Both the position numbers and the translations under genes were made by a program. Positions 24,293-60,016 of a DNA stretch of 64,000 nucleotides are shown here, piece after piece. The stretch spans positions 12,572,360 to 12,636,359 of the forward strand of contig NC_133232.1 of NCBI RefSeq assembly GCF_040436345.1, read 5' to 3'. This DNA is from Pagrus major (taxonomy: Eukaryota; Chordata; Actinopteri; Spariformes; Sparidae). Below the pieces are notes generated by a model that was not told the origin of the DNA, did no database searches, and saw nothing but the letters and a program-made list of their open reading frames with translations. Numbering within the stretch: position 1 is the first letter of the stretch; each line of letters begins with the position of its first letter.

Positions 24293-24297
24293 AGTGT

Positions 24298-27670: not shown

Positions 27671-28399
27671 GTGAATTCAGACTTCATCATGAATGCTATG
27701 TCTCCCTCATTCAGTGAGGAAGGCACGACAAGAAGGCATCGGGAGATGAAAATAATAAACTTCCTGCAGGATTTCTTTCAAAAGCTGGAAGACAGAGGTA
27801 ACAAGCTGGATAGAAACATTTTCTTTGATGATATTTGTCTGTCAATAAGTATTTTTATTGTTTTCCCACTAGTTCTAGGATTATACACTTAATAATAATA
27901 GTATAATTCAGTCAGACTTCTTAAGCAGTTTGCATACTTGAGAATTTCTCAGTTTGGTAAACCTTCCTTCTTTATGATGAAGGGCACTGTGCCAATGGCA
28001 ATGTTTTAATTTATATCTTTGTATTTATATATATGAGAAGAGGAGGAGAGCAAAGAAAACGATGAAGAAGAGGGGATCTCCTGCCAGGAAAGCCACCTGT
28101 CAGCTGTGCCTGGAACAACAGGCAGGGGGGAGCTTTTAACTGTGAGGAGTTTCTTACAGTGGGTGACGGGACAAGAACATCTGCCACTGATAGAAACCAA
28201 AAGTGAGACGTTCAAAATTTCAATCAGCTTTACCCATGACTGTCAAACCCACTACGGGGAACACAGCCTTTGCTTCACCACAGAAAACGTTTGTGCAACA
28301 GGGCTTACATTTCCCACACAGCACATTGAAACCTTTGAGGATTTTGAGAAAAACCTCACAACAGCCATCCATTTTGGATTTGACTTCAGTAGGCACTAA
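27671..28399 (+). pseudogene. HECT-type E3 ubiquitin ligase-like gene, C-terminal exons
   Basis: HECT ligases take ubiquitin onto a C-lobe cysteine and pass it to substrates. A first exon-like block (27671-27797, acceptor TTAATTTAG, donor GACAGAG|GTAAC) reads MNAMSPSFSEEGTTRRHRE. The second (about 28036-28399) reads VRSFLQWVTGQEHLPLI, then ISFTHDCQTHYGEHSLCF, then CATGLTFPTQHIETFEDF, and ends GFDFSRH-stop. The LPLI ... FP..H..Y..F..NL..A...GF pattern is the C-lobe of the G2E3-like HECT proteins that are numerous in teleosts, with the Cys of VCATGL at the catalytic position. The N-lobe was not found upstream, so only the 3' end survives here. The gene faces the integrase-core gene that ends at 28806. 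Confidence 0.65.
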
Positions 28400-28805
28400 A
28401 ATAGCCTATCAGCCTCTTTTACTTGAGGTGTGTTTTACCTCAGAGGAGGACACGAGTTCTCACGAGTTTTCCATCATGGCTCATTTTTTGGATTTCTTCT
28501 TCATTGAATTTTTAATCCAGATCTGCTTTCAATGTTTCACAACTGTTTTTACTAAAACCCCAAAATTTGCTAATGTTTGGTTTGTTGGCTGCAACAGCGC
28601 TGAGGACAGGAGACGGCACTTGACAGTTAAACACTCAAAACATTCTGATTAAGACCAAAAAGGCATTTAATTCAGTTTCATTGTATCTCATTAATATCCA
28701 AATGACAAACATTTTCAACAGATTTCCAAGGTGGAGGGGGTATGGAAAACACTGCTACAGCAGTAAGGGAGCAGCATCGTAACGTTAAGCTATGGCAGTC
28801 AGCGG

Positions 28806-31800
28806 TCAGTTTGCAGACAAAGCAGCAACCACATACTCTCGACACAGGCGGTAAAGATTTCGGCTGTCAGTGTCTCCATTTTCATGGAGCAGCATCTGCA
28901 TCTCCTCTAGCTGCCGATCATTCAGTGGACAGTCAATTTCAGGGACCACTACCGCACCATCTACATCCTCTCCGAAGTCTGTGGCTACATCCCAGTCAAT
29001 GGTCTGTCGTCCGTAGTCTGGTTCCTGAATATCCTGGAAATTGTAGAAGACAGAGTAACACACCATGTCTCATTCCATATCTACAGCAACACATGCAATG
29101 AGTTATCCTAAATGTTTTGGCTTTAGTGGCAGTTTTGTATAAAGTAACAAAAAAGCATACTTGAACAAATTGAGATATCAAGTTTCTGACAGTCACATAA
29201 GCAAAAATTACTTGAGTAAAAGTTTTGTAATGTTGGCTATTAAAAGTACCTAGTGCAAAACTAATTTTCTGGGAATAAACGTTATAGTTTAAGGTAAAGT
29301 TAAATGATACAAAACACTTTTGTTACTAATCTGATGGCTGATGAATGAAATTATTTTAAAGATGTGCTAGGCTGGCTAATTGATATAGAAGGTTGATGAG
29401 ACTTAAAATTATGAGAATTAATAGAAAAACATAGATTCACAATCATTATTATGATTTAAATGTAAAAAAAAATAGGTCAAAGTCATACTTATAAGATAAT
29501 TAAGTCCATGTTATAACTTTATTTGAACATGTACAGTAACCCCAAATTATGAGAAAAGGTTACAAATTGGAAGCAAAAACTACATATACGTATCTCACAC
29601 TTTTGTCTTTTTATCTTATAACTCAATACTCATTACTTTAACTCTCAGAAATGGGCTTTAATAGATACAGCTTGTAATATGCAAACAATTTTTTTTAAAT
29701 GAAACTGCATATTTTATCCCCAAAGTTGTAGTGGACTTGAAGTCATGAGGCAGAAAATTGAAATACTCCATTATAACGATGAAAAGTGCCTTGAGATGAT
29801 ATATGTTGTGATTTGGTGCCATATAAATAAAGCAAATGAAAATGCTGTACCCAAGTGAAGTACTTAAAGCAAATTTCTGTAACTTTTCACCTGAAAATAA
29901 CGGTTAAGTAATTTAAAATAATTTGAATGGTACACTGGAGAATTGCAGTCATTTAAAAAGGAAAAGGTAACCTCAGGATTCTCCGGCTGGTCAACTGGTC
30001 TGAGCATCCTTCCTGCATGCCAGAGCTGTTCAGGAGTTTTGTTCCCTTCACTTCTGAGAGGGTGGTTGTTCCAGGCCTCGACAAAAGCCTCCAGGTCTGC
30101 CTTCAGTTTTGGAAAGAAGGTCATGTGCACAGCAAGAAGATCTTCTGTTGAGGACAGGGTAGTAGTAAATCACTACGTTTATAGGTGCACATCAAACACA
30201 GCCTATACAATTTAACATTAAGTACAGGGTTGCCTTTTGAAATTATTAATTAATCCATGATGGTTTTTCTAGTGTTTTTGTAACATTTTGATAATTCAAA
30301 AGTTAGAGATCTGCAATGAACCGTGATTCCATTAATGTTCATTACAGTAGCCCTGACATTTGTCAACCAATCTAATCCTGTTGAAACTTACCAATTTTAC
30401 AAGGACTAGCATCATCTGTTTTTTACTCCAAATGACCCTTACCTTTGGAGGACACATTAAGAAGATGATCAGTTTCAAGGTTATGGAGATCACGGTAATA
30501 TTTTGATGTGACACATCACGGCACAAGCGTTCAATCCTTCAAAGACAGAAATTAACATTATTTCAACCTCTTAATTGAAGCTTAAATATTACAGTGATGG
30601 GTGCGCTGTTCAGATTTAGCAGTGTGTTTTTGTTTTTTCACACCTTTTATTTACTCAGAGCTGGGATTTCCATTTTTATTGGTGCCATGTGTAATAAATT
30701 ATGGCATATTTCATGTCAGAAACGACTTGTTTTTGGCTTTAGTGCAAGCATGGCATTATCATCTTATTTTGCTGTATCTTGCACTTCTGCTTATACCGGG
30801 GCTCAGTCAGGTCAGATGAGTGTTGATCATCAGGTCAATTCGGTCAGCACCAACTCGAGTTTGGACAGGTAACAGCCTGAGAATCTCAGACCAATCCCAA
30901 CACCAGGACAGGCGTGCAGAATTTGAAAATACCTTTCATTGTGGACACTTTTTCCAGACAGGAAACTTCTTCGGCCAGTTCCACGGATGGTGAACATGTG
31001 TCGTGCAATTTCCACATTCTCCACGCCTTGATCACTTCTTAACCTGAGGTGCAAGCACAAAGATGATTAAAATGTGTAGCAATCTGTCAGTAAGGAATAA
31101 TGCACAGAACTCTAGCGCACAAAACTTGCAAAGTGCGCCTGGATAAGCTTGCACCTGGTCTACAAAATTACAGCCCAAGAAGTGACAGAGTATAAGAAAT
31201 TACATTACTAAACCTTTAACACTACAATCCCAGATTCCATGTTGAAATTCTGTCTAGTAATAGCCCACAACAAACATCCTGGTTTATCTGGAAACAGGAA
31301 TCAAAGGCAGTGTGGACTGGGGCAACAAAATGAATGAAATCATGTTGACTCATCTGATATCTCCCCTCATTCACTCTCTACTTTGCTATCATCGTATGTG
31401 AACATGTTCTTCATGTCTTCAGTATGAGCAACATGGAAAACACCCTTGCATTTGATTGAAATTAATTTAATTTTAATTATTCATGCTTGGTACCAGTATT
31501 TAATGCTGAAGTTGTATTACAAACTGACTTATTTTAAATAGTCAAATATTAATATGGGGAAGCAAGCATTTTCTGACATGAGCAACAATGTGTTGCAGAT
31601 ATTATAGGAACTGGAAAGAATCCCAAGTGAGTCTCCTCGGTGCATTGATGCAGCAACTCTCCTCCACTGCACATGTATTCCAAGTGACTTCAGCCTCCCT
31701 TTCACTATGTGGTAGCCTGCTGCTGGCATTTCAGCTTTTATTTGTTGGACTGTCTCATCCAGCTCCTGGTCTGTAAAGTCTTGACCATACTGGCTGAAAC

Positions 31801-31831
31801 ACCCAGTAATTCTGCAATGCCTGAGCAATTC
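28806..31831 (-). pseudogene. Integrase-core-domain gene, copy A
   Basis: This is a member of a multi-copy teleost family with a retroviral-type integrase fold. Exons on the minus strand: 31831-about 31600 (FTDQELDETVQQI, helix-turn-helix remnant IAELLGVSAS in another frame, then VAASMHRGDSLG); 31043-30933 (LRSDQGVENVEIARHM, the second catalytic Asp, then SGKSVHNER); 30536-30443 (IERLCRDV with the catalytic Glu, then after a frameshift YYRDLHNLETDHLLN); 30144-29972 (DLLAVHMTFFPKL, then WNNHPLRSEGNKTPEQLW); and 29033-28806 (DWDVATDFGEDVDG, then VVVPEIDCPL, stop). The exon with the first Asp (normally WHIDGNHKL) was not seen. Splice sites are good, but frame breaks make this a likely pseudogene. 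Confidence 0.75.
29034..29971. other. Intron of integrase copy A with a retroposon tail
   Basis: AT-rich intron-like DNA. At about 29785-29840 it carries the motif CCTTGAGATGATATATG, then TGTGATTTGGTGCCATATAAATAAA, a common fish LINE/SINE 3' end by recollection. Confidence 0.5.
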
Positions 31832-32395
31832 CTGTAAGGGCAGTACAAGTTCTGGGGAGATATTTACATGCCTTGACAGTGCTTCAAATAGATAGAGCTA
31901 TTGTCGACATGTGAACAGCAGGAAGTCCAAGTCAAGAGGTGCTCTTGAGAGAGCTGACTCTAACTTTTTTTTGAGCCTCGAAATCATCTCATGTCTTAGG
32001 ATGCCCTGTTGACATGGAAAGCAGAACTTTAAAGATCGCATTAAAAATTATGATCCTTATTCACATAAAACATTTCATACATATAAAAAAGACAGAAGTT
32101 CATATCAGACAACACATGCCCTGTAAACACACATATGTAATGGGGTTTCAGGGAGTTGTTTTTCGGCCAATTCACTATATATTATCTCGCTTAGAACATG
32201 GCTTACTAGTAAATAACAATAAATAATATTAGTATTTCCGACCGCTATGTTGGTTTTATTTAATGTTACATCATTAATTGTGATGGTTAGTTACCGTATT
32301 TCCTCAATAAATGACGGAAATGAAGACGACCACCATCCTCTGCTTCAGAGAGACAGACTGCACCACCGGACTGCAGGTCTCTGCTCCGTGTCGCG

Positions 32396-33018
32396 GCAAA
32401 CCCATGGATCTAACGCTGACTTTTAACTACTGTATGATCATTTGTATGATGTTCATTGTAAAAGACATATAAAACAGTGCATGTTTTTATTTACAATTAA
32501 TTATATATTCTAATCCATATTATTATTATTAGTAGTAGTAGTAGTAGTATCATTATTCTATTTTGTTGTTTCGAATCTTTATCATATAACTTTGTTGTCA
32601 TAACTACAGATATAATGGGAGAAAGTTAACTGTCATAGAGAGTACACGAAAAGGAAGCAAGGAGTGTGCTTTGCTACATATATTTCAATATCTTGTGAGC
32701 TCCCCGCCAAAATGGCAACAAGGTATCGTTTGTTGTGTCTTCTGATGTTTTAGTGATAGTGACTGTAAAGTTATTGTATTGTTATTGTTATTGTATTGTT
32801 ATGAATTTGTATATAGCTACATTTATTGATTTGTATATATTTTGTGTTCACGTAACAGCTCTTACGGTGTTGATGTTGGCAAGGACGATGGAACGATATA
32901 TTAAAAGAGCTGAAAACTAACGGCGCCTCATCAATACTTGTAAAGCAAAAAAACATGAATTGACTGGGGATTGATACATAGTTAAAAGCCAGCGTTAGAT
33001 CCATGGGTTTGCCACCAC
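32396..33018. repeat. Inverted repeat pair, about 35-40 bp arms, 0.55 kb apart
   Basis: The left arm (about 32395-32430) reads CAAACCCATGGATCTAACG and continues with CTGACTTTTAACTA. The right arm (about 32978-33018) is its inverted copy with one mismatch. The interior has a TAG/TTA microsatellite (32520-32555) and no recognised gene. Confidence 0.75.
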
Positions 33019-33024
33019 TATGAC

Positions 33025-33175
33025 AGCTACTGAAACCATCGAAACGTAAACATACAGTTCCACCTGATGATAAAAAACGGCTTCCATTGTGTGAAGTTGG
33101 GAGAAAGGTGGATAGAGAAATACCAAGAGAGAACGAATGGAACCCTTCTGACTCAACATCACTAATAAGCAAGGT
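33025..33175 (+). CDS. Possible exon, basic protein segment, unidentified
   Basis: The plus strand reads a protein-like open segment (SKRKHTVPPDDKKRLPLCEV, then REIPRENEWNP, then SLISK), followed by a weak GT donor. About 1.1 kb downstream (34321-34383) another short exon-like block reads NEDASQREEQRAEPFTLPQ before CACAG|GTTAGAC. Both have biased, protein-like composition, but no family could be named and no start codon was found. Confidence 0.3.
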
Positions 33176-33215
33176 TGTTACTTACCGGTAAATCTTCAGG
33201 TGTCGCCATTACTGC

Positions 33216-33258
33216 TCTTCTTCTTCTTCTTCTTCTTCTTCTCCTTCTTCTTCTTCCA
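33216..33258 (+). repeat. (TTC)n microsatellite
   Basis: About fourteen TTC units with one CTC interruption. Confidence 0.95.
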
Positions 33259-33984
33259 ATTTGCCTCTGCTACCACTGAGCTTCCTGTCTGTGACGGAAG
33301 CTGTCATCAGCAGAAAACTGAAAAGGCACCCACGTGGGGGGCTGGAAAATGACCAATTATAAGAGGGCCGGGGTCAGCCTTGGTCTCAACCCCCAAAGTG
33401 TCAAAAGTCCTTGCTTCCAGTGAGCAGAGCTCCACAGCAGAGCACAGGGGAGAGAGAGAGCGAGCCAGCGCACGCAAAGCAGCTGCACAGTGTTGTTGTG
33501 CATGTCGCTGTCATTTTTTACTCGCTCGCACCTGCCTCTGCTTCACTCTGTTGCTGAATATGCGCGCAAAGATCAAACAAGTGCGCGTGGCAGTTGAAAT
33601 CTGCGCGTGTGCAGATGTGTTATCGCTCGCGCGACTTTTGACTCAAATATAACGCCATAAGCCCGGTTCTTGTCCTCTGTCTTACGAGCTTAAGGTATAC
33701 TGTTTAACAGTTATGTATAAGATACTATATTACTTATAGACTGCCATACCCAATATCATTCAAGTCCTGACATTTGTGGACATACTGCAACAGTTATGAA
33801 TCTGAAAGGATAGCTTCACCAAAATGTGCACAGCTGGCACGGGTGTTTTTCGTGTTGTTTATTCATAACGTACCTGGTGTTTAAAGACCTTAAGGCTGAT
33901 GTAACATCATGTTGAAACGATCGGTAACATTACAGCATTTACAGCAACTACTGTTAATTAGCTAACTATTCACCTTGTGAAGTG

Positions 33985-34135
33985 AATTCAGTTCAATTCA
34001 AAAGGCTTTACTGGCATGAACGTTTCAACAACAATGTTGCCAAAGCATCAAAATACAAGTTGTCCAAATATTTGGACAGTACACAATAACAGTAATATGA
34101 ACATTAATACAACATTAAGATTGATATGTATTGTA
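33985..34135 (-). repeat. Fish retroposon 3' end remnant
   Basis: The motif TTCAATTCAAAAGGCTTTACTGGCATGAACG followed by CAATGTTGCCAAAGCAT is a frequent teleost LINE/SINE 3' end in inverse orientation, recognised from memory. Confidence 0.55.
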
Positions 34136-34429
34136 TACAGTATCCTATGCATGTATGTATATTTCAGTTGAACTTGTTAAGCTAAATGTTCTCTCCCTTT
34201 CTCTCACTAACTTTACAATATTATTGTAACAACTACTATCTCTCTGTCTCTGTCCCTACCCCATCTCTCCCCCTCTTTATCTTATGTTTTTGATGAATAA
34301 TGGACTTGTGTTATTCTCAAGAAAGTAATGAAGATGCCAGCCAAAGAGAAGAGCAGAGAGCAGAACCTTTCACCTTGCCACAGGTTAGACAAAACTACAG
34401 TATACACATTTATGAAGTTAATTACATAA

Positions 34430-37739: not shown

Positions 37740-40700
37740 TAGGGCTGGGCGATAAAACGATAACGATAATTATCAATGAAAACTTTTCCTCGATAGAGAT
37801 ATGAAACATGGTCGATATAATTTTCGATAGATTACATTCGTCCATATTTTGACAGACAATACGAATAGCCAATGACAACGAGAGTTGCGCCGCACTGAAC
37901 CAATCACGTGGCTGGAATAGAGCCATGCCAGCAGCTAGTCGCGGCGTGTTTGTTTGTGCTGCTGCAGCAGTTTAAAAAAAAGAAAATGAGTGCTCCGACG
38001 AAGGAAATGACGGAAGCCCAAGACGTAAGGGATGACATCGTTGACAAGAAGGGCCCAAAAAGTTCGGTGGTGTGGAGGCATTTTGGTTTTTTAAAGTCCG
38101 ACACGAAACAGAGCAGTGTGCACTGCAAATTATGTCAAGCACATGTTCCGACAAAGACGGGGAATACCACTAATCTTTTCCATCACCTGAAGCAGCGCCA
38201 CCCGCTTGAGCACGGAGAACTTTTACAAACACAGCCCGGAACAAGTACTAGTCTTCCCCCCAAAACAACGCCTGTGCAGCAGCAACAGAAGACCATAGAG
38301 TCTCCTTTATCCAGTGTCATACTTTATGACAAAAAATCGAAGAGACACCGTGATATAACAAATGCAGTAGCTTATTGTATTGCAAAAGACATGCTACCAA
38401 TAAGCACAGTGGAAAATAAGGGGTTCAAGTGGATGCTAAAAGTTGTGGACCCTCGTTACAAACTACCTGGGCGTAAACATTTCTCCCACACCACACTCCC
38501 ACAGATGTATAATGAGTGTAGAGAGAGAGTCGAGAAAGAACTGCAAAATGTAGCACACTTTGCTACCACGTCAGATATGTGGTCCAGTCGCACATCTGAG
38601 CCATACATGAGCCTCACTGCCCACTTCATAGACAAAGACTGGAATCTGATAAGCAAATGCCTTCAAACGGTGTACTTTCCGGAAGACCATACAGGTGAAA
38701 TAATTGCTGCAGGACTGTCAGAAGCACTTGCATCCTGGGGCTTGAGTGAAGACAAACAAGTCTGCATCACAACAGACAGTGGGACGAATATAGTCAAGGC
38801 CACATCCCTCAACAACTGGACTCGGCTGCAATGCTTTGGGCATCGACTTCACTCAGCTGTTGGTAAGCCCCCCTCTGCTGTATATATCCCTGCCTCTGCT
38901 GAAATAATTTGTAATTTCATCAATATCATATATAAAAAATAAATGTATGTACAGTGTTGCAATATGCAAACAATAACAAAATCTGGACAGGGTGATTAAA
39001 TTCTGGCATGTTAACTTAGCATTTAACTTATTGTACTGTTGGATGTTTTCACATTACTGTAAGTAATCTTTTTTTTTTGATTAATTGAATATTTATGTAA
39101 ATTTCAATTCCTAAATTGTTTTATTTAAGTTCCTAATTACTTTAGAAACTAGGAACTGTTAAGGAAATGTTTAGAAATGTCCAGCTCAAATAAATAAGGA
39201 GGAATGAGCTTGAAATCCCACATTAGCATACAGCAACAAAGTGATAGCAAAAATAGAGAGAATAAGGAAATAACAAATAGTAAACAAGAAGTATAAAAAA
39301 ACAAGGATATGTAAAATATCAATTTAAACAAGAGACACAAAAACAGGAACAATATATACTGTAAAATAACAACAGTTTAATTTATGCTGTTTATCTTTTT
39401 TCCTCAGAGAGAGCAGGAAAAGACAAGAGGGTGGAGCGAGCTGTGGGTGTTTGTAAGAAAGTGGTGGCTTCCTTCTCTTTCTCGTGGAAGAAGAAGAGAG
39501 ACTTGGCTGCTGCTCAGGAAGAGTTTCACCTACCCCAACACAAGCTGGTGACAGAGTCACCCACCAGGTGGGGCTCACGTCAGAAAATGATTGAGAGGGT
39601 GTTGGAACAACAGAAAGCCATCTCTCAGGTACTGGGTGCAGATAAGAAGACCAGGCACTTGGTTCCCTCCTGGCAAGACCTAGAAGTGCTGGAGGCTATG
39701 CATGAGGCCCTGAATTCTCTACTGGAGTTCACTGATTCACTCTCTGGTGAATGTTATGTGAGTGTGTCATACCTGAAGCCAATGCTGCATCTCTTCAAAA
39801 CACAGATTCTGAAAACTTCTGACGATGAATCACAACTCACAAAGGACATGAAGATGACAGTCATGGCATACCTGGACGAAAAGTATGCTGACCAGAAAAC
39901 AGATGACCTGCTTGATGTTGCAACCTTGGTGGATCCACGTTTTAAGGTACAATACACCAAGCCAGAAAAGATTGATGCCATCAAAATGAGAGCAGTGTCT
40001 GAGATGTTGGAGGGAAACCAGGACCCGTCCACTTCAGCAAGAACAGAGGGACCAGGAGAAGAAGGGGCAGAAGCTGCTGCAGTGCTACCCACCCAGAAGA
40101 AACAGCGAAAATCATTGGGCAGTTTCTTTAAGAAATCATGTCCCACCACCAGCACAGGACTTACTGACAAAGAGACAGTGGAAAGTGAGCTTGACAAGTA
40201 CTTGCTGGCACCAGATGCGGACAGTGAAATGGACCCACTGCAGTGGTGGAAAATCCATGAAAAAAACTTCCCAAGAGTGAGCTGCCTGGCAAAGCGCTAC
40301 TTGTGCATCCCAGCGACCAGCACCCCCTCTGAGAGGGTATTTAGCACAGGGGGTAATATTGTGACCTGCAACAGGGCAGCTTTAAAACCGGAAGCAGTGG
40401 ATAGACTTGTCTTCCTCACCCGCAATCTAGTGTAGGCTTATGTCTGTCTGACCCAAAACATTGACAGCACTGAGAGACAGTACTGCACTCATTGGGATTT
40501 CTTGTGCCTTTTTTCTGAGCATCTGATAACAGTTGAGCCAATGTCTATTTTATTTATGTTGTCTTTGAAAGCTGCTTGAAATTGCACTGAGAGTATAAGA
40601 CATTTTTTTGGCTATTTATTGTTCTATTTTATTGTTTGTTCTTAAAAAAACAATATTTAAAACAATGTATTCAAAGGAGAGTTTCTGAAAATTTAATTAT

Positions 40701-44265: not shown

Positions 44266-46937
44266 ATGTGGGAGTGCAAGGCGTGTCCAGCAGCTGTTGA
44301 AAGCAGGTCTGACCTGCTTGCCCATTACAAACTCCATCATCCCCACTTTGGCCGTACCATTAACTACCCCTGCACATATTCAGATTGCCCGTGTACATTT
44401 AAAACATGGAATGCTTTGATTGTTCATCAAAGTAGATTGCATTCCACACAAGTTGGTCAGACTCTAGATGATTTGGCCACTTTCTCTTGTCACATATGTA
44501 ACTGTTGCAATTTGCCCAATGAAAGGGAGTACTTCATTCACATCAACACACATCTGAGGAAAAATGAGCTTGCATGTTCACTGACTGTAATTTTCAAGTG
44601 TTTATGGCACCTTTAAGTCTCACAAGAGTCGTCAACATAATCCACACACCTTAGCTGATTTTAGACCTGAAATTGTGAAGAATACTATTGTACCTTCACA
44701 TTCATCATCTGATTTGTTTGATTGTCAGGTGGAGGAGAGTGTGGAAGAGGGTCTTCCACCTGTAGATCACACTGTCACGCACAGTGAAGTGCCAAGTGCA
44801 ATTCAGAAGCAGCTTGCTGCAGCTTTATTGAAGTTGGAGCATTTGGTGCATGTACCAGGTACAGCTATTGATGATTTTTTACAGGAACTTCACTTCTTAC
44901 TAAACACTGCATCAGCCTCACTCTTTCGGGGATCGTTAAGCACAATCTTTGAATGTCACAACCTCCAGGTTGATGACTCAGTGATAACTGAAATAGTCAC
45001 AGCAGCGATATCTAACCCAGTTCATCAAGCAATTGAAAAGGGTGGCACACTCAGTACTACATACCAACGTAAAAAATACTATAAGGAAGAATTTGGCGTT
45101 GTTGAACCAGTTACCTACACACTAGATCACAAGAAAAAACACACTTTCCAGTATGTCCCACTTTTGAAGTCTTTGCAGAACACACTGAATTGCAGAGTCA
45201 TTCTTGATAAGGTCATTGACAACCATAGAGGACAGCAGGATACTGAGCTTGAGCCTTTCTTTGAGTTAAGGTCCCCTGAAGACGGTGTGTATTTTAAGAG
45301 TAATGCTTTTCTGAATTCTGATGAATTAAGATTATCACTGCGTCTTTATGTTGACGATTTTGAGACTTGCAATCCGTTGGGGACCTCTCGAAACAAACAT
45401 AAGCTTTGTGGTGTTTATTGGGTTCTAGGCAACCTACCACCTGGCTCCCACTCATCGTTGTCATCAATATTTCTGACGGTACTTTGCAAAAGTGTTGATG
45501 TAAAAACCTATGGTTTTGACAAAGTGTTGGAACCTCTCCTTCGAGATGTGAAAATACTAGAAGACTTTGGTGTGTATGTGCCTTTGTTAGGCAAGTGTCT
45601 TAAAGGCACAGTGCATTGTGTTGTGGCAGATAACTTGGGTGCACATAGTATTGCAGGCTTCATTGAGAGTTTTTCTGGCGAATACTTCTGTCGATTTTGC
45701 ACTGCAAAACGTTCTGAAACACAATCTGACTTTGTGGCATCTGGTGCTTTCAGCCTCAGATCGAAAGAGGGTTATGCGACTCATGTTACAGCTGCTCTTG
45801 AGGCTAATGTGCATTGCTGTGGAGTGAAAAGAGAGTGTGTTTTGACGAAAACCCTATCTCATTTTCATGTTGTGTCTGGATTTCCTCCAGATGTTGCACA
45901 TGATCTTCTTGAAGGGATCGTTCCAGTGGAGCTTGCATACTGCTTGAGGTCACTGATTTCAAAGAAGCTCTTTACACTGCATGATTTGAATAAAGCCATC
46001 TTGTCTTTCCCTTACAAGTGGTCAGATAAAACGAACAAACCCCATGTGCTGCCACAGAATACATGTAGTCGGACAAGTATAGGGGGAAATGCTCACGAGA
46101 ACTGGTGCCTCTTACGGCTCCTGCCATTTTTGATTGGCTCCATAGTTCCAGAAGATGAGCCAGCATGGCTTGTATTAATGGATTTAAAGGATATTGTTGA
46201 GCTTGTTGTTGGCCCAGTGCACACTGATGAATCAATTTCGTACCTTCGCAGCAAAATAGTTGAGCACAGGACCAGATACAAGGAATTGTTCCCTGATCTC
46301 CAACTCCTTCCAAAGCACCATTTAATTGAGCATTATCCCATCATGATGAGGAATTTCGGCCCTCTAGTCGCACTCTGGACGCTTCGATTTGAAGCGAAAC
46401 ATGGCTACTTTAAGCAGGCTGTAAAGCACACAAGTTGCTTTAAGAATGTACCACTGACTTTGGCTTCGAAACATCAGTTTATGCTTGCTTTTCACATGAA
46501 TTCACCTTCATATGGTAAATCTACCCTTGATGTATCCCATGTGTCCACTGTACCAGTTAATGTCCTGAAGGAGGAAGTGGTACAGGCTTTTAGGTCAAAA
46601 TTTCCCAGTACATCTGTGGTGCATCTTGCCAATAAGGCATCCAGTAGTGGCATACACTATAACAAAGGGATGATTGTAACTTATGGATCAGTCAGTGGAT
46701 TGACAGAGTTTGCTGAAATCACTCAGATGTGTGTTGAAAATGAAGAGCTGTTCCTCTTTCTGAAATTGCTTTGTGGGTGGTATAATGAGCACTACAGAGC
46801 TTTTGAACTGAGTGTGTCACCAGCTAGAGAATTAAAGCTTGTGGCCATCACTGAACTCTGTGACCCTTATCCATTGGCTGATTACTTAGTTGGATCGAGT
46901 CGCATGGTTACTTTAAAAAGGCATATCCACATTAAAG
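44266..46937 (+). pseudogene. C2H2 plus DDE-transposase-like protein, one frameshift
   Basis: The start codon at 44266 follows an acceptor by three bases. The first part has Cys2His2 fingers (CKACPAAVESRSDLLAHYKLH, cited as CKAC and HYKLHH; CTYSDCPCTFKTW with HQSRLH; CHICNCC with HINTH). A net frameshift between about 44575 and 44605 breaks the last finger. The fingers go on in the next frame at TFKSHKSRQHNPHTLADF. The long remainder (to 46937) is an RNase H-like transposase-related domain with plausible acidic residues in LYVDDFETCNP, VVADNLGAHSIAGF and LRFEAKHGYFKQ. It also has a zinc-binding CRFCTAKRSE and PPDVAHDLLEGIVPVEL. It resembles CACTA/EnSpm- or KDZ-like transposase cores in organisation. 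I cannot assign a superfamily firmly. Function in the host is unknown. Confidence 0.65.
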
Positions 46938-47145
46938 GTTAGTCAACTTTCTTAACAATCTGCTTGGTTATATAAATGTCTCTTTTTTTCTTTATCTTTT
47001 TATGTTGCAACTAAACTTCACATTCTAGTTGAATTTTTGTGCAATATGGATTGTGTTAACACTTACCTTATAAACAAGCATAATGTGTCTCTATTCAACT
47101 GTATTAATACTTTCTTCTTTATCCTCTTTATAGACTGATGTGATC

Positions 47146-50100
47146 ATGAGTTCCCCAGCCATACTGAAAATCGTCCTGACAGACAACACGTGTCAAAGAT
47201 TGACGTTCCCAAGAGGACTACCTACAGCCCTTGATGACCTGATTTGTGAAGTACAGAGACAGTGTGGCTTAATGTCAAATTTTAGACTGCAGTTCATGGA
47301 CTCGCTGTTTGGAAATGACTTTATGAACCTGACTTCCATGGACGAATTACAGGATAGAGGGACAATTAGGGTAATTCCAGATGCCTTAACTCCCATGAAT
47401 GCTAGTAGCCCCTCCATCTCAACTGCTGCTCCTTCCACCACTTCAAATTTTGAAGGACCTTCATCCCCATCTGTTAACAGTGTCGACACTGACATCATCT
47501 CTTCACCAGAGTCTGAGCCATCTGGGTCAAGGTCACTTTGGCCTCCCACCTTCCAATGCCCTATGTTTTCTTATGATGCAGAATTGAAACTTCAGAGGGC
47601 AAATGCAGCTTACAAGGAGAAAGGTACCTTGCTTTGTGCAGATGCAGACCCTAAACTGAAATCAGACATTCTCCATGGACTAACTCAAGAAATAGTCAAG
47701 TATGGTCTTTATGTCACTGACAAGCAGTTTAGCATGGTTGGGAAGGCCCTCATTTCCAGGCACCCTTGCCTAACTGAAGAAAGTTCTTTCACTGGATATG
47801 CTGGGTGGAAAAGTAGCTTGAAGAATAAACTGGCACTCTACTGTTCTCGCTTGAGGAAACTGGGGTGTCCTGAGGTGATGATCAACTCTGTTGAGCGGAC
47901 ACCTGGGATCAAAACAAGTCCTGCTCTTGGAATAAAAAAACCAAAGAGATCCGAGGTCAACTACTTCCCTGCTTATCCTACAGGGGAAAATGATGTGTCC
48001 CTTGAGAAGCTTAGAGCGGAACTTACTTCTGACGTTAAGAGGAGGAATAGCAGGGAGGTGATAAGAATGAAAATGGAGAAGACATTTGCTTACAGAAGAC
48101 AAGAAATTGTTCGTAACACACCCTTGATCCATGAGGTCCAGGAAAAATGGCCAGCCCTCTTCGAAGTACAAGAGGTGAGGCAATATGATAACTGTAAACT
48201 GACATGATTCTGAAGAGGATTGTGATTGGCGAATGCATGCAACATGTGGTTCATAGAGAGAGATTGTTTTTTTGTGTCTATTTTTGTGCTTTATGTTGCC
48301 ATGTTGATGGTTTATATTTCAGGTTTCTGTCCAAATCACTGAAAATTAAAGGTTAGGTGGGAGATCCTTGAAAATTCTTTTAGCAAGCTGAATATGAAAG
48401 TGCGTTTCTTTAGACATTCCCTGAAGGCCCACCTCCAGAGTACAGGACAAGCGTTGTCTATGACACAGAGAGTGGAGGAGAGGGACATCTGGCAGTTTAA
48501 GGAGGTTTGGTGTGAATTGAGCCGTAGCCCTATTCAAGGTCACTGAATGCTGTCTATGGACCATTTTAGGTTCTAGTTCCATTGCTGTTCCCACAGGACT
48601 TCCTGTTTAACATTCCATACGTTATCTTAATGTAGAGGAAGTTGTCTGGGAACAAAATAGAATGTTCAAGCATTGTATTTGTTTACATCACTGAACCCCT
48701 CCATAGGAAGAAGAACGAAGAAATTTGATACAACATAGGCCGAATAGTGAACTGGTCACTTACACTAAGTAAATGGGGCATAGTGACTCACTTTTAGTTT
48801 CATTTTGCTATGCCCCATTCACTTAATAGTAGTCATTGGTTCATTACTCGGTCTATGTTGCATCACATTTTCTGGTTCTTTTTCCTACAGACAGCACTTG
48901 GTGATCTCTAACAACAGGGGATGGATCAATTCACACTTAAGTTTGATAGACATGTCAGCATTGAATCGTTTCGAACGAGACACTCAAAACTATTGGATGT
49001 TTTCTGTCCTGTTCATTCCGCAAGGGGCCAACCTTTTTTATTTTTGTGTTGGAGCATTTAATTAATTAGTTGAAATCAGGGTGTGAAGGGGATTTTAAGC
49101 AATAATACCAGTATATCTCTTTATTTGTTGTCTTCCTCAGATCAATGCCGAATTCAAGCGGATCACAACCATCCCCCTCCAGTCCAGATTTCTTTCGCAG
49201 CTAGACATTCTCTCCGACAAGCTTGTGAAGCTTTTCAAAAACCGAGCTGGCCCGATTGGCACACATCTAAAGACCATTTTGTCACCCATTACTCAGGTAG
49301 GAATTGCCTCACTGCTGTGGGATGATGATTGATGTGTGTCGTAAAGTAAAATGTTTGTCTAATTAAATGTCACTTTTTCCTAATCCCTGTTGACCTAGGA
49401 TGGTGATGGTGATCGTGATAATGATGATGTTGATGTTGGGCGGGAGTGCCTTCTGAAAGGGTTGTGCATCTACCTCAATGAGGACCCGAGCAACCTTGTT
49501 CGAGAAATTGTGGTAAGTGTAAATTGTGGCCCATTTGGACACAAGAACTGCAGAACTACACAAAAGTTGGAATTTCACAAAATGCTGACAAATTTCCAAA
49601 CAGGTCATTATCACATGAAGTCAGAGTCAGGGAGGTAAAGTTGATCTAATGGGTCATAGAAACTGAAGGCTCTATGCAGATGTAGTGCAAAAATATATAC
49701 TGCAAGCAGACAGAGGCGATCTGTAGGCTGAAAACATGGCAGAGAACATTTATTGTAAAATGACAGTAAGTTAGAATCACGAGCCCGTATAAGCCCGGAG
49801 GGCAGCACAGCCTACCGCCAGGGCGGCTACACTGTACTGACCTCCTGAACCACATCTTTCTACAGTATTTAAAGTGTGTCTCCTCCTCTCCGAGGAAAAG
49901 CACGATCATCAAATGATTGTTAGCCAGCCTGTGGCCTAACAACAAAGGGATAAAGGTCATGAGCTTGATTGGCAAAGAGTGGGCTTGATCAAAAGATGAT
50001 GACTACAGCCCTGTGTCAAGACAACCCTTAGGAATACATCAGATATAGTTTCATGCTACATTCCATCATATAATTATTTATACTACACAGACTCAATGTA

Positions 50101-52358: not shown

Positions 52359-52389
<31 letters not shown>

Positions 52390-52395: not shown

Positions 52396-53508
52396 TACAT
52401 TTATTTCGACATTTCTGTTCACCTACATTTATTTATTTCTGTATTTCTGTGTCCATATGTTAATGAGGTAGGAGGTCCTAACCTCAGTCAACAGCATGAT
52501 TGGTTACAGGAGTGTGCTCGATTCGGGTCTACTACTTCTGCCTTACTAGCAGCGCTGATTCGTGTACAGGAATGTTGTTGGCTACCAGCCCGCCCGCTCA
52601 GCTAACCATTAGCTGCAGTTGTTGACATTTGTTATTTATGTAGCTCTGGTTTAGTAATGGCATTTTTTGTACGAGCGATTGTGAATGAATTACGATCATT
52701 AGCGAACGATTTAGAGAACCATGCAACCAACAACTATGTTCAGTTTCGTCTGGATAGATTGATGGATGACTTGGCTCAGCTCAACGCCAATATGGATGTG
52801 GAAATTGAGCCAGCAGTGTTAGACGGTCTTGAAGAAGTCACCCGCCAACTTTACATCCTGTCAGAGACAGAAGAAGGGACCCTTGGACATCCGTCGTACA
52901 ATATACCCCCCACTTTAATCGGAGTACCTACTCTGGGGGCACACTGCTGAGGAAATAGCACAGGTGTTGGGAGTGTGCGAGAGAACAATTCGTCGGAGGA
53001 TGGCACAGTACGGAATAAGGTAATTTTACTCCCCTAACGCTACATTGTCTGTTTGTCTGGTTTCCTCTTTATATTCTTTTAAAGGTGGCAATATATGTGT
53101 GCAAATTCACAGATATATTTAACTAGCTAGTGTTTATTGAAGGTAACGTTGCTCACCTTATCTCCAAATAACACTGGGAAATATACTGTGTTTCTTATAT
53201 AGTCTAATGTTAGGTGCACATTTGAGCATTAAATGTTTGTTAGTCTAAGCTTTTTGTATAAATTGTTCATGATATCATAGAACATTTATCCCTACAATAA
53301 TGTCTCCTTGCACTGCTCTGCAATCTGAGTTTAAGTTAACTAAAAATTAACTAACGTTACTGATATTAACTTACATTAATATGGACTGGGAATAGGTCTA
53401 ACAATACTTGATGATATAGGCCTATATGCTTTGGTTTTCAATGACAGATGGACTGGTGACTAACATGCTTATATTACTGACAAAGTAATGTAGGAGTGTA
53501 GTAATTAG

Positions 53509-53859
53509 TGTAGGAGCCAAAATTGGTTTGGCCTGTATTATTAATTGTTTATTCTGCACACGCTCTTTGGTTACTATCATTTCCGGCAATTAACACCTGG
53601 GTGTGGTTTCACGGTATTTTACCTGTTCAGTTGCACGGCGGTTCTGGTTAGACAAAGAGGGTGAGTGGGGTTGGATATTTTCTGTTGACCGTTTCAATTC
53701 ATTTCCATAACGTATCGTTTTGTTTCCATATACTTATATAATTTTTTGTTTCAATAAAAACGTTACTTTGAGTCAAGAATGGATTTATACGAGCGCATCG
53801 CAGACAAGACCCCACTGAGCCTCTTAGCAGCCTTTTAAATTGGACAATTAGTCGCTACA
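53509..53859 (+). mobile_element. Solo LTR in intron of integrase copy B
   Basis: A 351-bp block begins TGTAGGAGCC and ends GTCGCTACA, with AATAAA at 53753. The flanks ATTAG and CTTAG form a 5-bp duplication with one mismatch. Confidence 0.6.
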
Positions 53860-54834
53860 CTTAGTTTATCATATGTACTCCTTACAGGTAGTGGATTTGT
53901 GCTGCTGCATTTGTTGATACTGCACATGGGTGCCATTAATTAACATCTTCAGTTTGTCAGATAATCTGTAACCCTATTTCTGGAGTAAAAAGTGAACAGA
54001 GTAAGATGTGACATTTCAGCACAATTGCATTAGTTTGGCACATGATAGTCTTGCTTTGATAAACTCATACAATATGAACGATTTTAACTTAAATTATAAA
54101 TAAAATTCATAAACTGATAGGCATTTAGGTTATTTCTACAGGACACAGCAGCTGAGTTTAGACTAAACAGGAATGAGGTTTCTTTTAGGTGACACCGATT
54201 TAAAATAATCTAATCCTTACACTGCAGCTAACGACAGAGCAACAGACTCCTTGTGGTCAATGTGTTTTGTTTGTACTGTGAGATAGGTGACATTTCTTTG
54301 TTGCCTCTTGTGACTTTTTTCTTGTTATTTTTGATGATCAGAGTCCACAATCTATTAACTCAAATAGAGGACAACAATCTGGATGAAACTGTGACCCAAA
54401 TTCTGCAGCAGCATCCCATGACTGAATACAAAATGATGGTTGGGCACCTGAATGCACAAGGCATACACATACAAAGTAAAGAATTGTATTCATTACCCAT
54501 TCATCTGTTTAGGGGTTATTTTATGTTGGGATTTGGCCTACTTGCTGATTTACTCACAATGTGAGGAAGCTGCTTTATTTAGTGCTAGTCTGGATTTTAT
54601 CTGGATTTGTGAATTCACTGCCAGATTGGGGAATGCTTTACTTTTTTTCAGTACACCATATCTGTGCATTGTTTTGCCTATTATTGGACAGCGTGTCCAG
54701 GAATCCATGCGGCGAGTGGATCCTGGTGGAGTTTTGATGCGCACCCTTCAGCTGAGCCCAAGAAGGCGTAGGAAGTACTCTGTTAGAGCACCGAACAGTT
54801 TATGGCACATCGATGGAAATCACAAACTGATAAG

Positions 54835-55349
54835 GTATCGAAAAAACATTAACCATCTCAAGCACCCACTTCATTGTAGATTTTACTACTGTAAGATACT
54901 AACTACCCAGTTTAGTGTATATCCAGAGCAGTCACAAAAGCCCATCTACAATTTTAATTAACCTACCAGTGCACTGCAAGCCAAACTGGGATTTATCAAT
55001 GGTGGATGGATCAAATTATTTAATCCATCAACGTTCTTGTGCATGCAAATCAGTTTTACTGACTTCTACCAGCATCAAAATTAAGAGTAATGCTGGTTGG
55101 TTTTTTGAACTTTTAGGTGGGGTGGCTTTTTAAAGTGGTCCGAACGGGTCAGTTAGAAACTGTAATAAACCTTCTGTTTTTGGCACAGTACTCTATTGTA
55201 GATTGTACAATGTAGAAATTGTAATCTGTGTATATACAGTCTGACAGGGGCTAAAATGGCTACGGCTCCCACACTGTGCACCCAGTATTGATGTCAATAT
55301 TGGGTTAGGGGCTACCGAATTAAAGTTGCACTCAAAACTTTAACCTCAG
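54835..55349. other. Intron-like stretch where catalytic exons are expected
   Basis: No frame here reads the second Asp or Glu segment of the integrase core. I see no other gene or named repeat. Confidence 0.5.
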
Positions 55350-56974
55350 CCATTGTCTACAATGAAATGCATCTCTTTGCTCTGCACTGGTGCTTTGTGC
55401 CCGACATACAGAAGCACCTTCAGTTTTTCCAGCGTGGCTGGAACTGCCACAGACTACGCACTGAGGGCAACCAGTCACCGCTGCAACTGTGGACTCGCCA
55501 TGAGCATGAGGCGCAGCAGGGCCCCATACAGGTTTGAATTTATTCAGTAATTCTGTTTTACTTTAACTTTTAATTTCCTACATGGGATATTGTCAACATT
55601 ATCTCCACTTTATGTCCATTATAAAGTGCATGTATCAGTAGCAAAATGTAACTAATAGTGGCCTTTTGTTCAGGAACTAAATGTGATTTATACTGCCTAT
55701 CATTGGCACTTTCAACACAATAAGGTATTGCTACAATGTTGTGGTCAAACAAGGAGCAGTGATTTAGAGAGAAGATTATACATCTTAGCTCTCAAAATTA
55801 ATGTATTAGCTCTTGGAAATTGTAGTCAAGCTCTTTCTGATGCCATAACTGTTTTTGGGGCATATATTACAGAATCCCAGATGATAAACAAGTGATAGTT
55901 TTGTAAAATGAATGAATATGGCTTACAGTTCTGTAGACATATTTACCATAAAAATCTTTAAGACTTTGATTTTGATTGACCCTTTATCCTACCCTTTAAC
56001 CTCAGCTTTTGCAATTGCAGGTTGACATGTAGTTTGGAGTTGACTGGACTGGACCATGTGGTCACTGTCAGCCTGGTGTTGTGGTCCCTGAAGTTCAGCT
56101 GCAGCGCTCACTGACTGACCAGGAAGTTGAAAGTCTACCAGACCCTGATGGCCCTCTGTCCAATGTGTTAGATGTTTATGTACAAAGTGTGAGCTTATTA
56201 TCAGAAATGCTCCAGTAAATCCATATTGCTCAAGTTCTGAAAGAAGCCGGAATTATGGTTTAGCAGTTCTGATATCTGTGTTGAATCGCATTCTTATTTG
56301 CCAAACACATCTTTGTTTCAAGTGTCTAAAATGATTTTTTTTTTGAAGTAAAAAGAATGGTAATGACAGCATTTTTATTTTATACCAGATGTATAAAACT
56401 TGCTGCATTGTAAAATATGACTGCAAACAAACACTTTTTGCAATAAGCAATTTATGTCTATTACTATTAATGAACTTTTTTTTTAACCATTAAGTTTAAA
56501 CATTGAAAACCATTATGGTTATGTAACAGAGCCTTGTACGAGAAACTGTCCTGTAGTTACCAAGATAACTTGTTTTGAAGTATTCATTTCACATGTGATT
56601 GGAGACTTACAGTCTCTGAATCAGAAGGCTTGGGAAACTGCAACATGCATCCTGTTTCAGAACAATACTACAAATAAAGAACAGCAACAATTCAATTTGT
56701 CTCTGTAACAGTCTCCTGAGCTTTAAAGGAATTGTGAACAATGAGATTAAACCTAAAAGACAATTGTATAGACATGAAACAAATAACAACTTTGCTTCAC
56801 CACATCACAAGCATGCAGACCTTTTTACTGCACCAGTGTTACACACACTGGCAGAACTAGGCACTAGTTGATATCAATCTTTCAAATGCTTTTATGCTGC
56901 AATCCAAATTTTGTTGCAGGCCAAGCAAGACAACAAATGTACACTAAGGTGTACAGTGATATATTGATGTGTCC

Positions 56975-59900
56975 TTAGACCATTCCAAACCCAGTGTCAG
57001 TGCTACAAATAGCAGCAAGAATGTCTCTTTCAAAGTTAGAGTACTCTTTGTAATGTCCTATGAAGTTTAAGCAGGTGGAAGCAGGTGGAAGAACTGGGGA
57101 AGTTGCTCTCCACCACATTAACATCCAAGTGTCTGGGCAGCACATTCCACCCTATCCAGAACTGCAGGAGTTTCCCAAGGACGCTTGGAGATGCTACCAA
57201 AATAGAGAATAAAGTCAACATTTATTTTATTGCCTGAAATGATTTTGTATCATCAATAATAAATGAAGTTGAAAAAAGAACCTAATTTTACTTAATTTGT
57301 GCTTTGGGTTATTCATGTAGCTAATAATCCACAGGTAATAAAAAAGTAGAGGAAGCAAAGCCTTGTGTTTTTGACCAACATTCATTTATTTGCACCCAAT
57401 ACAGACTTTCAGTTAAATAACCTGAGGAACTGTTAAAAGTACATATTTACCGTTCTCAATAAATGTGCGAAGGAATCCTGTGATCCTACATGTATCCTCC
57501 AAAGAGACATCACTGTCTTCATCCTCATCCTGTGTTGGCCAGTTTATCTTTTCCAAGACCATCTGACAGATCATTTTTTCAAATCAGTTAACACTTGTTT
57601 TTCCCAACAGCCCAGAGAATATAAAGCACAATAAACCACAGAACAGAAAATATGAGTAATTGTCAATTCTAATAATCCAAATTGTAATTTGGTCAGGGCA
57701 TGGTTGTAGGCAGTTTTAAGAAGCATACTGGAGGTTTTGCATGGGTAAAGTTACAGCAAATGGCAAACTGAGCACTTCCAGTCCTGTTGAGCAATTTCTA
57801 AATCATCCATCAGTTTTTTGATTGGTTTCCTTCTTTTAAGGCAGCAATTAGTACCAGTTCATTTCATTTGAAAAACAACTTGCAAGGACTTAAGGACAAC
57901 CATGTTTTTGCAGTGCTACAGTGTTTTTGCAGTGTCACTCATGCAGTGATATAATGTAGGATTAACTTCAAAAAAGAAGAAAAAGTGATCAAATGCAGAC
58001 TGGTTATTTGCAAAAGGTTTCCATCTCTCCAGGTTAATGTTTGTTGTAATAAACTGAAACAAATTGCTGCCAGAGGGTAGAAAATAAATGTAATTTCTGG
58101 GAAAGTAATTCTTATGAGTTAGGAGGAGTGTTTTTTACTTAGCAGCATCAGTCACTTACCCTTGGTGGGCACTGTAAATCAGATGGTCTTGGAAAGAGAA
58201 GGGGAATTGTGTCTTTCCTCTCAGTTAGCAAAGGCCAGATCAGTGTCTCTTTTAAACCCCTTCGTAACGGTTTGACTTGTCTGGAGGTTCTTCCAAGTAC
58301 CTGCAAAATATTTGCATCAAAATAGAAAAGCCAAGCAGCATTACAAATCTTCTACAGATAGCCCTATTAGTATTAATAACCTCATCAACATCCATCTGTG
58401 TATCTCAGAAAAAAGTCAAAATGTAGTCCCACATCAAAACTTGTACTTTGATTAGTCAGTCTGATTATATGAGCTATTTAGTACAGAATAGGATAGGACA
58501 ACTTATTGATAATTAGCAATCATGCAGTTGACACCACCCACTGGTCTGAAACAGGGGTTTGCTGCATAGACTGTAAAAGTGAAGCCAAAACATTTCATTC
58601 ATAAGCCCCACCCCCTCCATGTTCATGTACATGTCAAAAAAATGTTTCCCAAAGATGGTTTCTGTCATTTTTAGGTATTTTCTATCACACTGATGTTTGT
58701 TCAAGTGTTCATTTTTCTGATAAGTTTGGTTTTTATTAGTTATTTTTTGCTGTAAAAACAGACTGAAATGTCATGATTAACAGCTGTGATTGACTCACTA
58801 CTACGCAGACTCTGGCTCCAAAGTGACAAGATGGCGGTGCTCATATCTGGAATATTTTGGCTTCACTTTTGTACAGTGAAAGAAAGTGGAGCCGCGTCGT
58901 CCATCTTTAGATACAGTCTATGGTCTCAAACCACATGCCAAATTATTTTCATTTCGCTTGTGATCAGCATGTTAGTAGTCAGTAACTGTAAAACAATGTT
59001 TGCTCCAAAAAACACATTTTACATGACATGGGTGTAGGGGGATTACGTTTTATCTACAGGGGAATTTAGGTCAGCAAAGAGACATAAAGTACCTGACACA
59101 TAAAACTGGGTTATAATTGTAATTACAATATTTTTCTGGAGGTTTAAATTGCTGGGGTCAAATTGACCCCAAGGATAAAGGATGTTAGTATATTTGAGGA
59201 TAACAGGAGGGTTAAAGAGATTCCTTGCACTCCCTGCTGGTGCAAATTGTAACTACATGATGTGATTGTGGAAGTATCTATAAAGTTGATCAAGTTGAAT
59301 TACCAATATTTAAATTGAATAAATTGATTATAAAAATATATTTATTTTTCCCCTGACATCAGATATTCTTTTTATCATCCTAGCCCCATTTTGTATCAAT
59401 AAAATCATACTTGAAAAAAATGGATCGTACCAACTTGATTTTCTCACGGATACCAAGGTCAGCACAGTCCTTAATATCGATTGTGGCTTCTTCTGGGGAT
59501 CCACCAAAGAGCACATGCAGGATAGCTGGGCTCAGTCCACCAAGGCATGGCCCATCATGTAGAAATGAATGACCGATCATTTGACCAGCAACAACAAAGA
59601 AGTCACTCTCCAAAAGGATATGGGAAGTGGAGGGAATCCGATGATCTTGTTCCCCGTCGCACTTGAATAAAAAGAGAAAAGTCAAAGCATATAGATAGTA
59701 ATGTAAAGGACATAGATATTTAACTGTCATACAGCATTAGTTAAGGAAATATCAATCAGCCACTGAATATTCTGGTTGATCCTGTAGAAACCTAAAGGTT
59801 CACAGCAGCTACATTCACAATTAGCGATAAGTTTAGTATTCTCTGGGTAAGCGTAAAGGTCTGGGAAAACAGATCTGTTTTCAGTCTGGAACTGGTACCA

Positions 59901-60016
59901 ACCAAACACCAAAGTGAATATTTACTTACCAAAATTGATCTCAAAACCATACTGAACTTTTGACATGATGGTTGCAAAGAAATGGCGAGTCACACCATCA
60001 CCAATTGCTGGATCTC
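56975..60016 (-). pseudogene. HECT-type E3 ubiquitin ligase gene (G2E3-like), copy 2
   Basis: Minus-strand exons with good splice sites: 60016-59930 (GDGVTRHFFATIMSKVQYGF); 59661-59431 (CDGEQDHRIPSTSHILLESD, VVAGQMIGHSFLHDGPCLGG, AILHVLFGGSP); 58300-58160 (VLGRTSRQVKPLRRGLKETL, PLLFPRP); 57562-57451 (MVLEKINWP, TCRITGFLRTFI); and 57193-56975 (LGKLLQFWIGWNVLP, FPSSSTCFHLLKLH, then after a one-base shift GHYKEYSNFERDIL, TGFGMV-stop). These follow the HECT N-lobe and C-lobe in order, and STCF holds the ubiquitin-accepting Cys. A frameshift right after the catalytic region and the absence of exons beyond 60016 (a gypsy LTR begins at 60328) suggest a decayed copy, or a gene whose 5' part lies outside the window. 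Confidence 0.8.
58565..58922. mobile_element. MITE with CATAGACTGTA termini
   Basis: The left end CATAGACTGTAAAAGTGAAGCC is matched inversely by GGCTTCACTTTTGTACAGTG and TACAGTCTATGG on the right. The interior includes ACAAGATGGCGGTGCTC, a segment that recurs in fish genomes. It lies between exons of the HECT gene. Confidence 0.65.

What the first reader, a model, noticed from the sequence alone, without database searches (positions are those of the whole stretch)
27671..60016. An integrase-core gene and a HECT ubiquitin-ligase gene sit tail to tail, twice
At 27.7-31.8 kb a HECT-like gene (plus) ends 0.4 kb from the end of an integrase-core gene (minus). At 52.7-60.0 kb an integrase-core gene (plus) ends 0.75 kb from the end of a HECT gene (minus). 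The order and convergent orientation are the same, while the whole unit is flipped. Chance pairing of two multi-copy families is possible, but two mirror-image pairs in 33 kb suggest a two-gene mobile or duplicated unit in which a ubiquitin ligase travels with an integrase. I know both families as separate uncharacterised teleost proteins and do not know a description of the pair as one element.
Basis: partly seen in the sequence, partly recalled or inferred. Interest (0 to 1): 0.85.

Follow-up and report, generated by a model that had tools for sequence, protein, structure and literature searches.

The report
Fish transposon with a ubiquitin ligase
Two decayed stretches of fish DNA each pair a gene for a DNA-moving enzyme with a gene for a ubiquitin-tagging enzyme, tail to tail, which looks like an undescribed two-gene jumping element, although its ends have not been found.

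Summary
Searches found two loci of the PF24764 integrase-core family and two HECT loci in the window, and each integrase ends tail to tail with a HECT gene: gap about 0.41 kb at 27.7-32.0 kb and about 0.76 kb at 52.7-60.3 kb, the second pair in mirror orientation. The pairs are not a recent duplication: no DNA similarity, and the two integrases are 33% identical. The two HECT families share an N-terminal domain and zinc knuckle, so they most simply go back to one gene. Random placement of the four loci in the window gives two such pairs in about 1 of 10,000 trials (post hoc). Relatives of the integrase have a DDE triad and match IstA, Mu and retroviral integrases by fold; relatives of HECT B keep the catalytic cysteine. 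All four window genes are broken or incomplete. Best reading: two remnants of an old two-gene DNA transposon lineage that works like IS3EU, with a HECT ligase as accessory gene. No terminal repeats or target duplications were found and no further genomic copies were reached (the genome search did not complete), so movement as one unit is inferred. The paper searches made found no description of the pair.

The parts
27671..27796 (+). HECT A, exon before the C-lobe exon
   Evidence: 86% identical to residues 408-449 of P0166
28073..28399 (+). HECT A, last exon: C-lobe with a cysteine at the catalytic position, and stop; upstream exons not found
   Evidence: 77% identical to residues 451-541 of P0166, E 6e-46; Pfam HECT 15.7 bits, below cut-off
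28806..29042 (-). integrase A, last exon and stop
   Evidence: 62% identical to the C-terminus of P0001
29972..30145 (-). integrase A, exon after the catalytic Glu
   Evidence: 83% identical to P0001; PF24764 E 1.5e-12
30444..30515 (-). integrase A, short exon
   Evidence: 96% identical to P0050
30932..31045 (-). integrase A, exon with the second catalytic Asp
   Evidence: PF24764 E 1.2e-9; 77% identical to P0001
31613..32008 (-). integrase A, N-terminal part with one in-frame stop and part of the helix-turn-helix region missing; no match to the stretch with the first catalytic Asp was found
52657..53017 (+). integrase B, N-terminal exon with helix-turn-helix; the reading frame breaks near 52945
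   Evidence: tblastn to P0059 (28%) and P0097 (58%) in two frames
54358..54474 (+). integrase B, second HTH-like exon
   Evidence: 42% identical to P0066 over 54358-54492
54689..54838 (+). integrase B, exon with the first catalytic Asp
   Evidence: PF24764 E 2.5e-7; 57% identical to P0097
55355..55495 (+). integrase B, exon after the core; no match to the part with second Asp and Glu was found
   Evidence: 53% identical to P0091
56036..56218 (+). integrase B, C-terminal exon and stop
   Evidence: 39% identical to P0081, E 4.6e-4
56975..57197 (-). HECT B, last exon: C-lobe with catalytic cysteine; frame shift near 57070
   Evidence: 75-89% identical to P0122 in two frames
57440..57565 (-). HECT B, exon
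   Evidence: 79% identical to P0121
58157..58300 (-). HECT B, exon
   Evidence: 90% identical to P0122
59428..59658 (-). HECT B, N-lobe exon
   Evidence: 88% identical to P0122 over 59428-59682
59931..60023 (-). HECT B, exon
   Evidence: 87% identical to P0122
60198..60311 (-). HECT B, upstream exon with one in-frame stop
   Evidence: aligned with P0165

Best explanation
Each pair is the remains of one copy of a two-gene DNA transposon of teleosts. One gene, with several exons, codes for a DDE transposase of the PF24764 family (helix-turn-helix N-terminus, RNase-H-like core). The other, convergent with it and sharing the short space between the two 3' ends, codes for a HECT ubiquitin ligase with an N-terminal domain and a zinc knuckle that resembles ubiquitin-binding ones. 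Proposed working: the transposase binds the element's ends, cuts it out and inserts it elsewhere, as IS3EU elements and retroviral-type integrases do; the HECT protein is an accessory that ubiquitinates a host or element protein to favour transposition, most likely a silencing or restriction factor, less likely the transposase itself. Shown: convergent anatomy twice, family identity, catalytic residues in relatives, broken state of both copies, shared architecture of the two HECT families. Inferred: shared ends, joint mobility, the age of the partnership and the target of the ligase.
For: Two of two integrase loci and two of two HECT loci found in the window are convergent pairs with gaps of 0.41 and 0.76 kb; chance 231 of 2,262,386. 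Integrase relatives carry D-x56-D-x34-E: Asp in 37 of 37, Asp in 34 of 37 (3 gaps), Glu in 33 of 37 (3 gaps, 1 Ser) rows of alignment A3, a chosen set; the model of P0021 matches IstA, Mu, TnsB and retroviral integrases (79 matches with E up to 0.001, best 1.6e-6). HECT cysteine in 20 of 22 rows of A4 (2 gaps); the model of P0125 matches UBR5, Rsp5, Smurf and NEDD4-type HECT structures (92 matches with E up to 0.001, best 1.7e-10). HECT A and B families share N-terminal domain and zinc knuckle: P0166 with P0159 40%, E 2e-39; P0159 with P0162 35%, 5e-50; P0166 with P0162 30%, 7e-13. Precedent for a second gene opposite to an IS3EU transposase: fungal TET+ IS3EU families with an alpha-kinase gene (PMC12730594, passages).
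Against: Only two pairs seen, in one TE-dense window. No terminal inverted repeat better than shuffled sequence and no terminal repeat with a 6-bp duplication. No copy outside the window was reached. Decay is unequal inside each unit: B keeps most HECT exons but no match to the transposase core's second half; A keeps most of the transposase but only the last two HECT exons. Among the 10 species for which searches list both families with a contig length, the lengths agree in 2 (Triplophysa rosa, Brachyhypopomus gauderio; compared by eye), which at chromosome scale is no evidence of linkage. Model matches are to cores only (TM-score on the query 0.23-0.30 for the integrase and 0.27-0.40 for the HECT in the 50 rows shown each). 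No result bears on what the ligase modifies.
Confidence: 0.62

Rival explanations
1. Chance neighbours: two multi-copy families, each mobile or duplicated on its own, happen to lie tail to tail twice in a TE-rich region.
For: The window holds transposons of several kinds; no common ends were found; unequal decay of the partners.
Against: Two of two and two of two loci found are paired with the same orientation; 1.0e-4 by random placement at the window's own density.
Confidence: 0.22
2. Old host gene pair (an integrase-derived gene next to a HECT gene) that was duplicated with inversion, so that the HECT is no transposon gene.
For: Order and orientation are conserved while the unit is flipped; the genes have introns.
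Against: No DNA similarity between the units, integrases 33% identical, both units broken, and relatives lie on many contigs in many fishes. A host pair under selection would not be expected to be dead twice.
Confidence: 0.08
3. HECT genes of this class are cargo captured more than once by different PF24764 transposons, without a lasting partnership.
For: Fungal DNA transposons of different superfamilies have exchanged TET/JBP genes (PMC12730594, passages).
Against: Same position and convergent orientation beside two deeply diverged integrases, and shared HECT architecture, fit one old partnership better.
Confidence: 0.08

Closest known systems
IS3EU / GingerRoot DNA transposons (PMC10045372, passages seen)
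   Same: Eukaryotic DDE transposase of the IS3/IS481/retroviral-integrase group; IS3EU is counted in killifish genomes (PMC12763893, passages)
   Different: TA..TA ends and 6-bp target duplications not found here; the paper has no occurrence of HECT or ubiquitin; comparison with IS3EU sequences was not possible
Fungal TET+ IS3EU families with alpha-kinase and TET/JBP genes (PMC12730594, passages seen)
   Same: Transposase plus an accessory enzyme gene in opposite orientation
   Different: The opposite gene is a kinase, with a dioxygenase gene between, in fungi; here a HECT ubiquitin ligase in fish. HECT and ubiquitin do not occur in the paper
G2E3 (as in NCBI labels 'G2/M phase-specific E3 ubiquitin-protein ligase-like')
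   Same: HECT domain
   Different: No PHD or RING finger family matched in the relatives scanned; the label looks like a best-hit name
Burro giant LTR elements of planarians (PMC6431247, passages seen)
   Same: Transposable element with ubiquitination-related extra domains
   Different: LTR retrotransposon with RING-type and MATH_TRAF_C motifs; HECT does not occur in the paper

Membership tests
IS3EU superfamily | IS3/integrase-type DDE transposase core | tested here: met
   PF24764, triad D-x56-D-x34-E in relatives, fold match to IstA and retroviral integrases; the broken window copies do not show the whole triad
IS3EU superfamily | No HHCC zinc module before the core | tested here: inconclusive
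   Pfam gave helix-turn-helix matches below cut-off and no zinc-binding integrase domain in the four relatives scanned (P0001, P0021, P0091, P0097); the motif itself was not searched
IS3EU superfamily | TA..TA termini with inverted repeats | tested here: inconclusive
   No candidate pair of ends in either unit better than shuffles; the copies are decayed and their extent is unknown
IS3EU superfamily | 6-bp target site duplications | tested here: inconclusive
   None found together with a terminal repeat
IS3EU superfamily | Groups with IS3EU transposases in a tree | not testable with these tools
   No IS3EU reference sequences at hand; the link from PF24764 to IS3EU is an inference
HECT E3 ligase | N- and C-lobe HECT fold | tested here: met
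   PF00632 profile positions 24-305 of 306 in P0125 and P0136; fold match of P0125. For family A only the C-terminal part of the profile matched (P0166, 226-301)
HECT E3 ligase | Catalytic cysteine in the C-lobe | tested here: met
   20 of 22 family B relatives, 2 gaps; cysteine at that place in window copies A and B and in the 3 family A relatives
HECT E3 ligase | Ubiquitin ligase activity | not testable with these tools
   Needs an assay
G2E3 | PHD/RING-type fingers before the HECT domain (recalled) | tested here: not met
   No PHD or RING family matched in P0159, P0162 and P0166, the relatives with long N-termini, nor in P0122, P0125, P0136, P0138, P0145, P0149. P0159 has a match below cut-off to the RNF220 family (20.3 of 26 bits)

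The most novel reading that the evidence does not exclude
A whole lineage of teleost DNA transposons codes for its own HECT ubiquitin ligase, kept in a convergent pair with the transposase since before integrase families A and B split, and used against host silencing or to control transposition; many of the HECT genes annotated in fish as G2/M phase-specific E3 ligase-like would then be transposon genes.
Probability: 0.45. Interest if true: 0.8.

Novelty: new variant of a known kind. Interest (0 to 1): 0.6.

Why it matters
If true, it gives a transposon-borne ubiquitin ligase in vertebrates, could explain many fish HECT gene annotations, and offers a defined second protein to test for anti-silencing or transposition control, parallel to the TET dioxygenases and kinases of fungal IS3EU elements.

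Tried and rejected
Terminal repeats: a scan for TA..TA ends with 6-bp duplications (none for B; for A two weak pairs without both features) and gapped local alignment of flanks against mononucleotide shuffles (73, 117, 143 and 150 of 200 shuffles reach the observed score in the four zones) gave nothing. An ACCGTA motif that I saw right of both units does not stand out (2 matches to a pattern built on it, 1.92 expected; one of them lies at unit A, none at unit B).

Missing upstream HECT A exons were sought left of the LTR element by Pfam in three stop-masked frames (none) and by tblastn with three relatives over the whole window (none). The first test is weak: the same kind of scan over HECT A itself also found no HECT.

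Outside copies: the PF24764 alignment against viral contigs and genome contigs and the HECT alignment against viral contigs found no relative. The genome search did not complete; by its description it holds prokaryotes, so a fish assembly may not be there.

Papers: searches found no description of the pair or of HECT in such transposons. No paper held all terms, none reached the four of five terms asked for, and no paper held IS3EU, HECT and transposase together. Searches listed only 20-25 of 104-329 papers, so a paper beyond the lists may have been missed. The two papers with IS3EU and ubiquitin and the one listed high with HECT and transposase (PMC3946583) were checked by passages and are unrelated. 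Marin 2010 on animal HECTs has no word beginning with transpos; PMC12062965 and PMC6431247 have no HECT. The library holds open-licence papers only, and Repbase entries could not be read.

Recent segmental duplication rejected. Intron read-through proteins P0153 and P0164 show that intron sequence of HECT B occurs in other contigs, but these may be the same locus in other data sets, so they are not used as proof of mobility.
Full report
What is there. The window is eukaryotic and TE-dense. Unit A has HECT exons on the plus strand at 27671-27796 and 28073-28399 and integrase pieces on the minus strand between 32008 and 28806. Unit B has an integrase on plus from 52657 to 56218 and a HECT gene on minus from 60311 to 56975. 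tblastn over the whole window with 120 integrase and 45 HECT relatives finds no other locus of either family at E up to 0.001, nor do three HECT A relatives.

Identity of the integrase. It belongs to Pfam PF24764. The search found 153 relatives, 120 of them listed; the names that are given are of ray-finned fishes, and some rows have no name. Among the listed proteins integrase A scores best with P0001 of Pimephales promelas, integrase B with two unnamed proteins, P0091 and P0097. In the 37-row alignment A3, chosen from the list, the first Asp is in 37, the second in 34 with 3 gaps, the Glu in 33 with 3 gaps and one Ser, spaced D-x56-D-x34-E. Of the 120 listed proteins 50 matched all three motif patterns and 38 of those had exactly this spacing; I did not look into the other 70. 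Pfam adds helix-turn-helix matches, all below cut-off, in four relatives. The predicted structure of P0021 (mean pLDDT 74.7) matches IstA, Mu, TnsB and retroviral integrases; TM-scores on the query are 0.23-0.30 in the rows shown, so the match is to the core. By sequence no solved structure matched.

The HECT genes. HECT B has 45 relatives, the named ones all fish. P0125 and P0136 cover nearly the whole HECT profile; the family profile matches 3 distinct PDB sequences of HECT ligases weakly and the P0125 model matches many HECT structures (mean pLDDT 67.2, 136 of 446 residues below 50). The catalytic cysteine is in 20 of 22 rows, 2 gaps. HECT A has three relatives above threshold, best P0166 of Sparus aurata. 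Longer relatives of A (P0166) and of B (P0159, P0162) share an N-terminal domain followed by a C2HC knuckle. The knuckle region gives weak matches, all below cut-off, to several zinc fingers that bind ubiquitin or belong to ubiquitin ligases (RNF220, XAF1_C, Zn-C2H2_12, WRNIP1 in P0159; UBZ_FAAP20 in P0166); P0162 gave only a LYAR-type finger. I read the knuckle as ubiquitin-binding-like, an inference. The two HECTs are thus most simply divergent members of one gene lineage, though a shared domain alone could also come from shuffling. They are not G2E3 by the features tested: no PHD or RING family matched, in spite of the database label.

State of the copies. Both are dead or incomplete. Integrase A has an in-frame stop, and no match was found to the stretch with the first Asp; integrase B has a frame break, and no match was found to the part with the second Asp and the Glu; HECT B has a stop and a frame break; of HECT A only the last two exons were found. 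Left of HECT A lie a palindromic MITE-like stretch and an LTR retroelement, which may explain the loss.

Is the pairing more than chance? Random placement of the four loci in the window with random strands gave both convergent pairs within 760 bp in 231 of 2,262,386 accepted trials (4,000,000 drawn, overlapping ones dropped) and within 3 kb in 3,150. This uses the window's own density, so TE richness is partly allowed for, but the pattern was chosen after seeing it. The pairs share no DNA similarity beyond chance matches and the integrases are 33% identical over 169 aligned positions, so I count them as two separate observations and not one duplication.

What could not be shown. No terminal repeats or duplications were found. 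DNA copies elsewhere were not reached: three collection scans found none, and the genome search was busy in 15 of 15 tries. Contig lengths listed with the proteins agree for both families in 2 of 10 species with such data (by eye), which is little at chromosome scale; besides, one search used integrase A and HECT B as queries, so true partners need not be in the two lists.

How it most likely works. The DDE protein should cut and paste the element. The HECT protein would ubiquitinate a host silencing factor or, less likely, the transposase. Fungal TET+ IS3EU elements carry a kinase gene opposite to the transposase and a TET/JBP dioxygenase gene between them, and the dioxygenases are thought to help escape silencing (PMC12730594, passages). 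For the fish HECT this step is inference only.

Against what is known. IS3EU/GingerRoot is the nearest described superfamily (PMC10045372, passages); IS3EU is counted in killifish genomes (PMC12763893, passages). I do not file the units as IS3EU members: ends and duplications were looked for and not found in these decayed copies, and no reference sequences were at hand. They appear to work like one. The paper searches made (some with capped lists) found no description of the HECT-integrase pair.

It added that the Pfam frame scan is insensitive, that paper lists were capped, that the zinc-knuckle and structure matches are weak, and three papers checked by passages.

Noticed in passing
21933-26662: LTR retroelement with LTR stretches 93% alike over 100 nt, flanked by a short TGTT match (read), just left of unit A.
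   Followed up: partly
27038-27424: Palindromic MITE-like stretch (arms within 27038-27162 and 27282-27424, 75-88% complementary) between the LTR element and the HECT A exons.
   Followed up: no
32395-33013: Inverted repeat of 41 bp, 95% alike, enclosing about 0.6 kb right of integrase A; both arms translate to a similar short motif.
   Followed up: no
44675-48207: Two long open frames in a row (755 and 355 aa) without a Pfam match at E up to 0.01; may be another uncharacterised two-gene mobile unit.
   Followed up: partly
37908-40435: hAT-type transposase with BED finger and dimerisation region in two separate open frames.
   Followed up: partly
57851-58306 and 59303-59713: Intron sequence of HECT B recurs in read-through proteins from short unnamed contigs (P0164, P0153).
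   Followed up: partly
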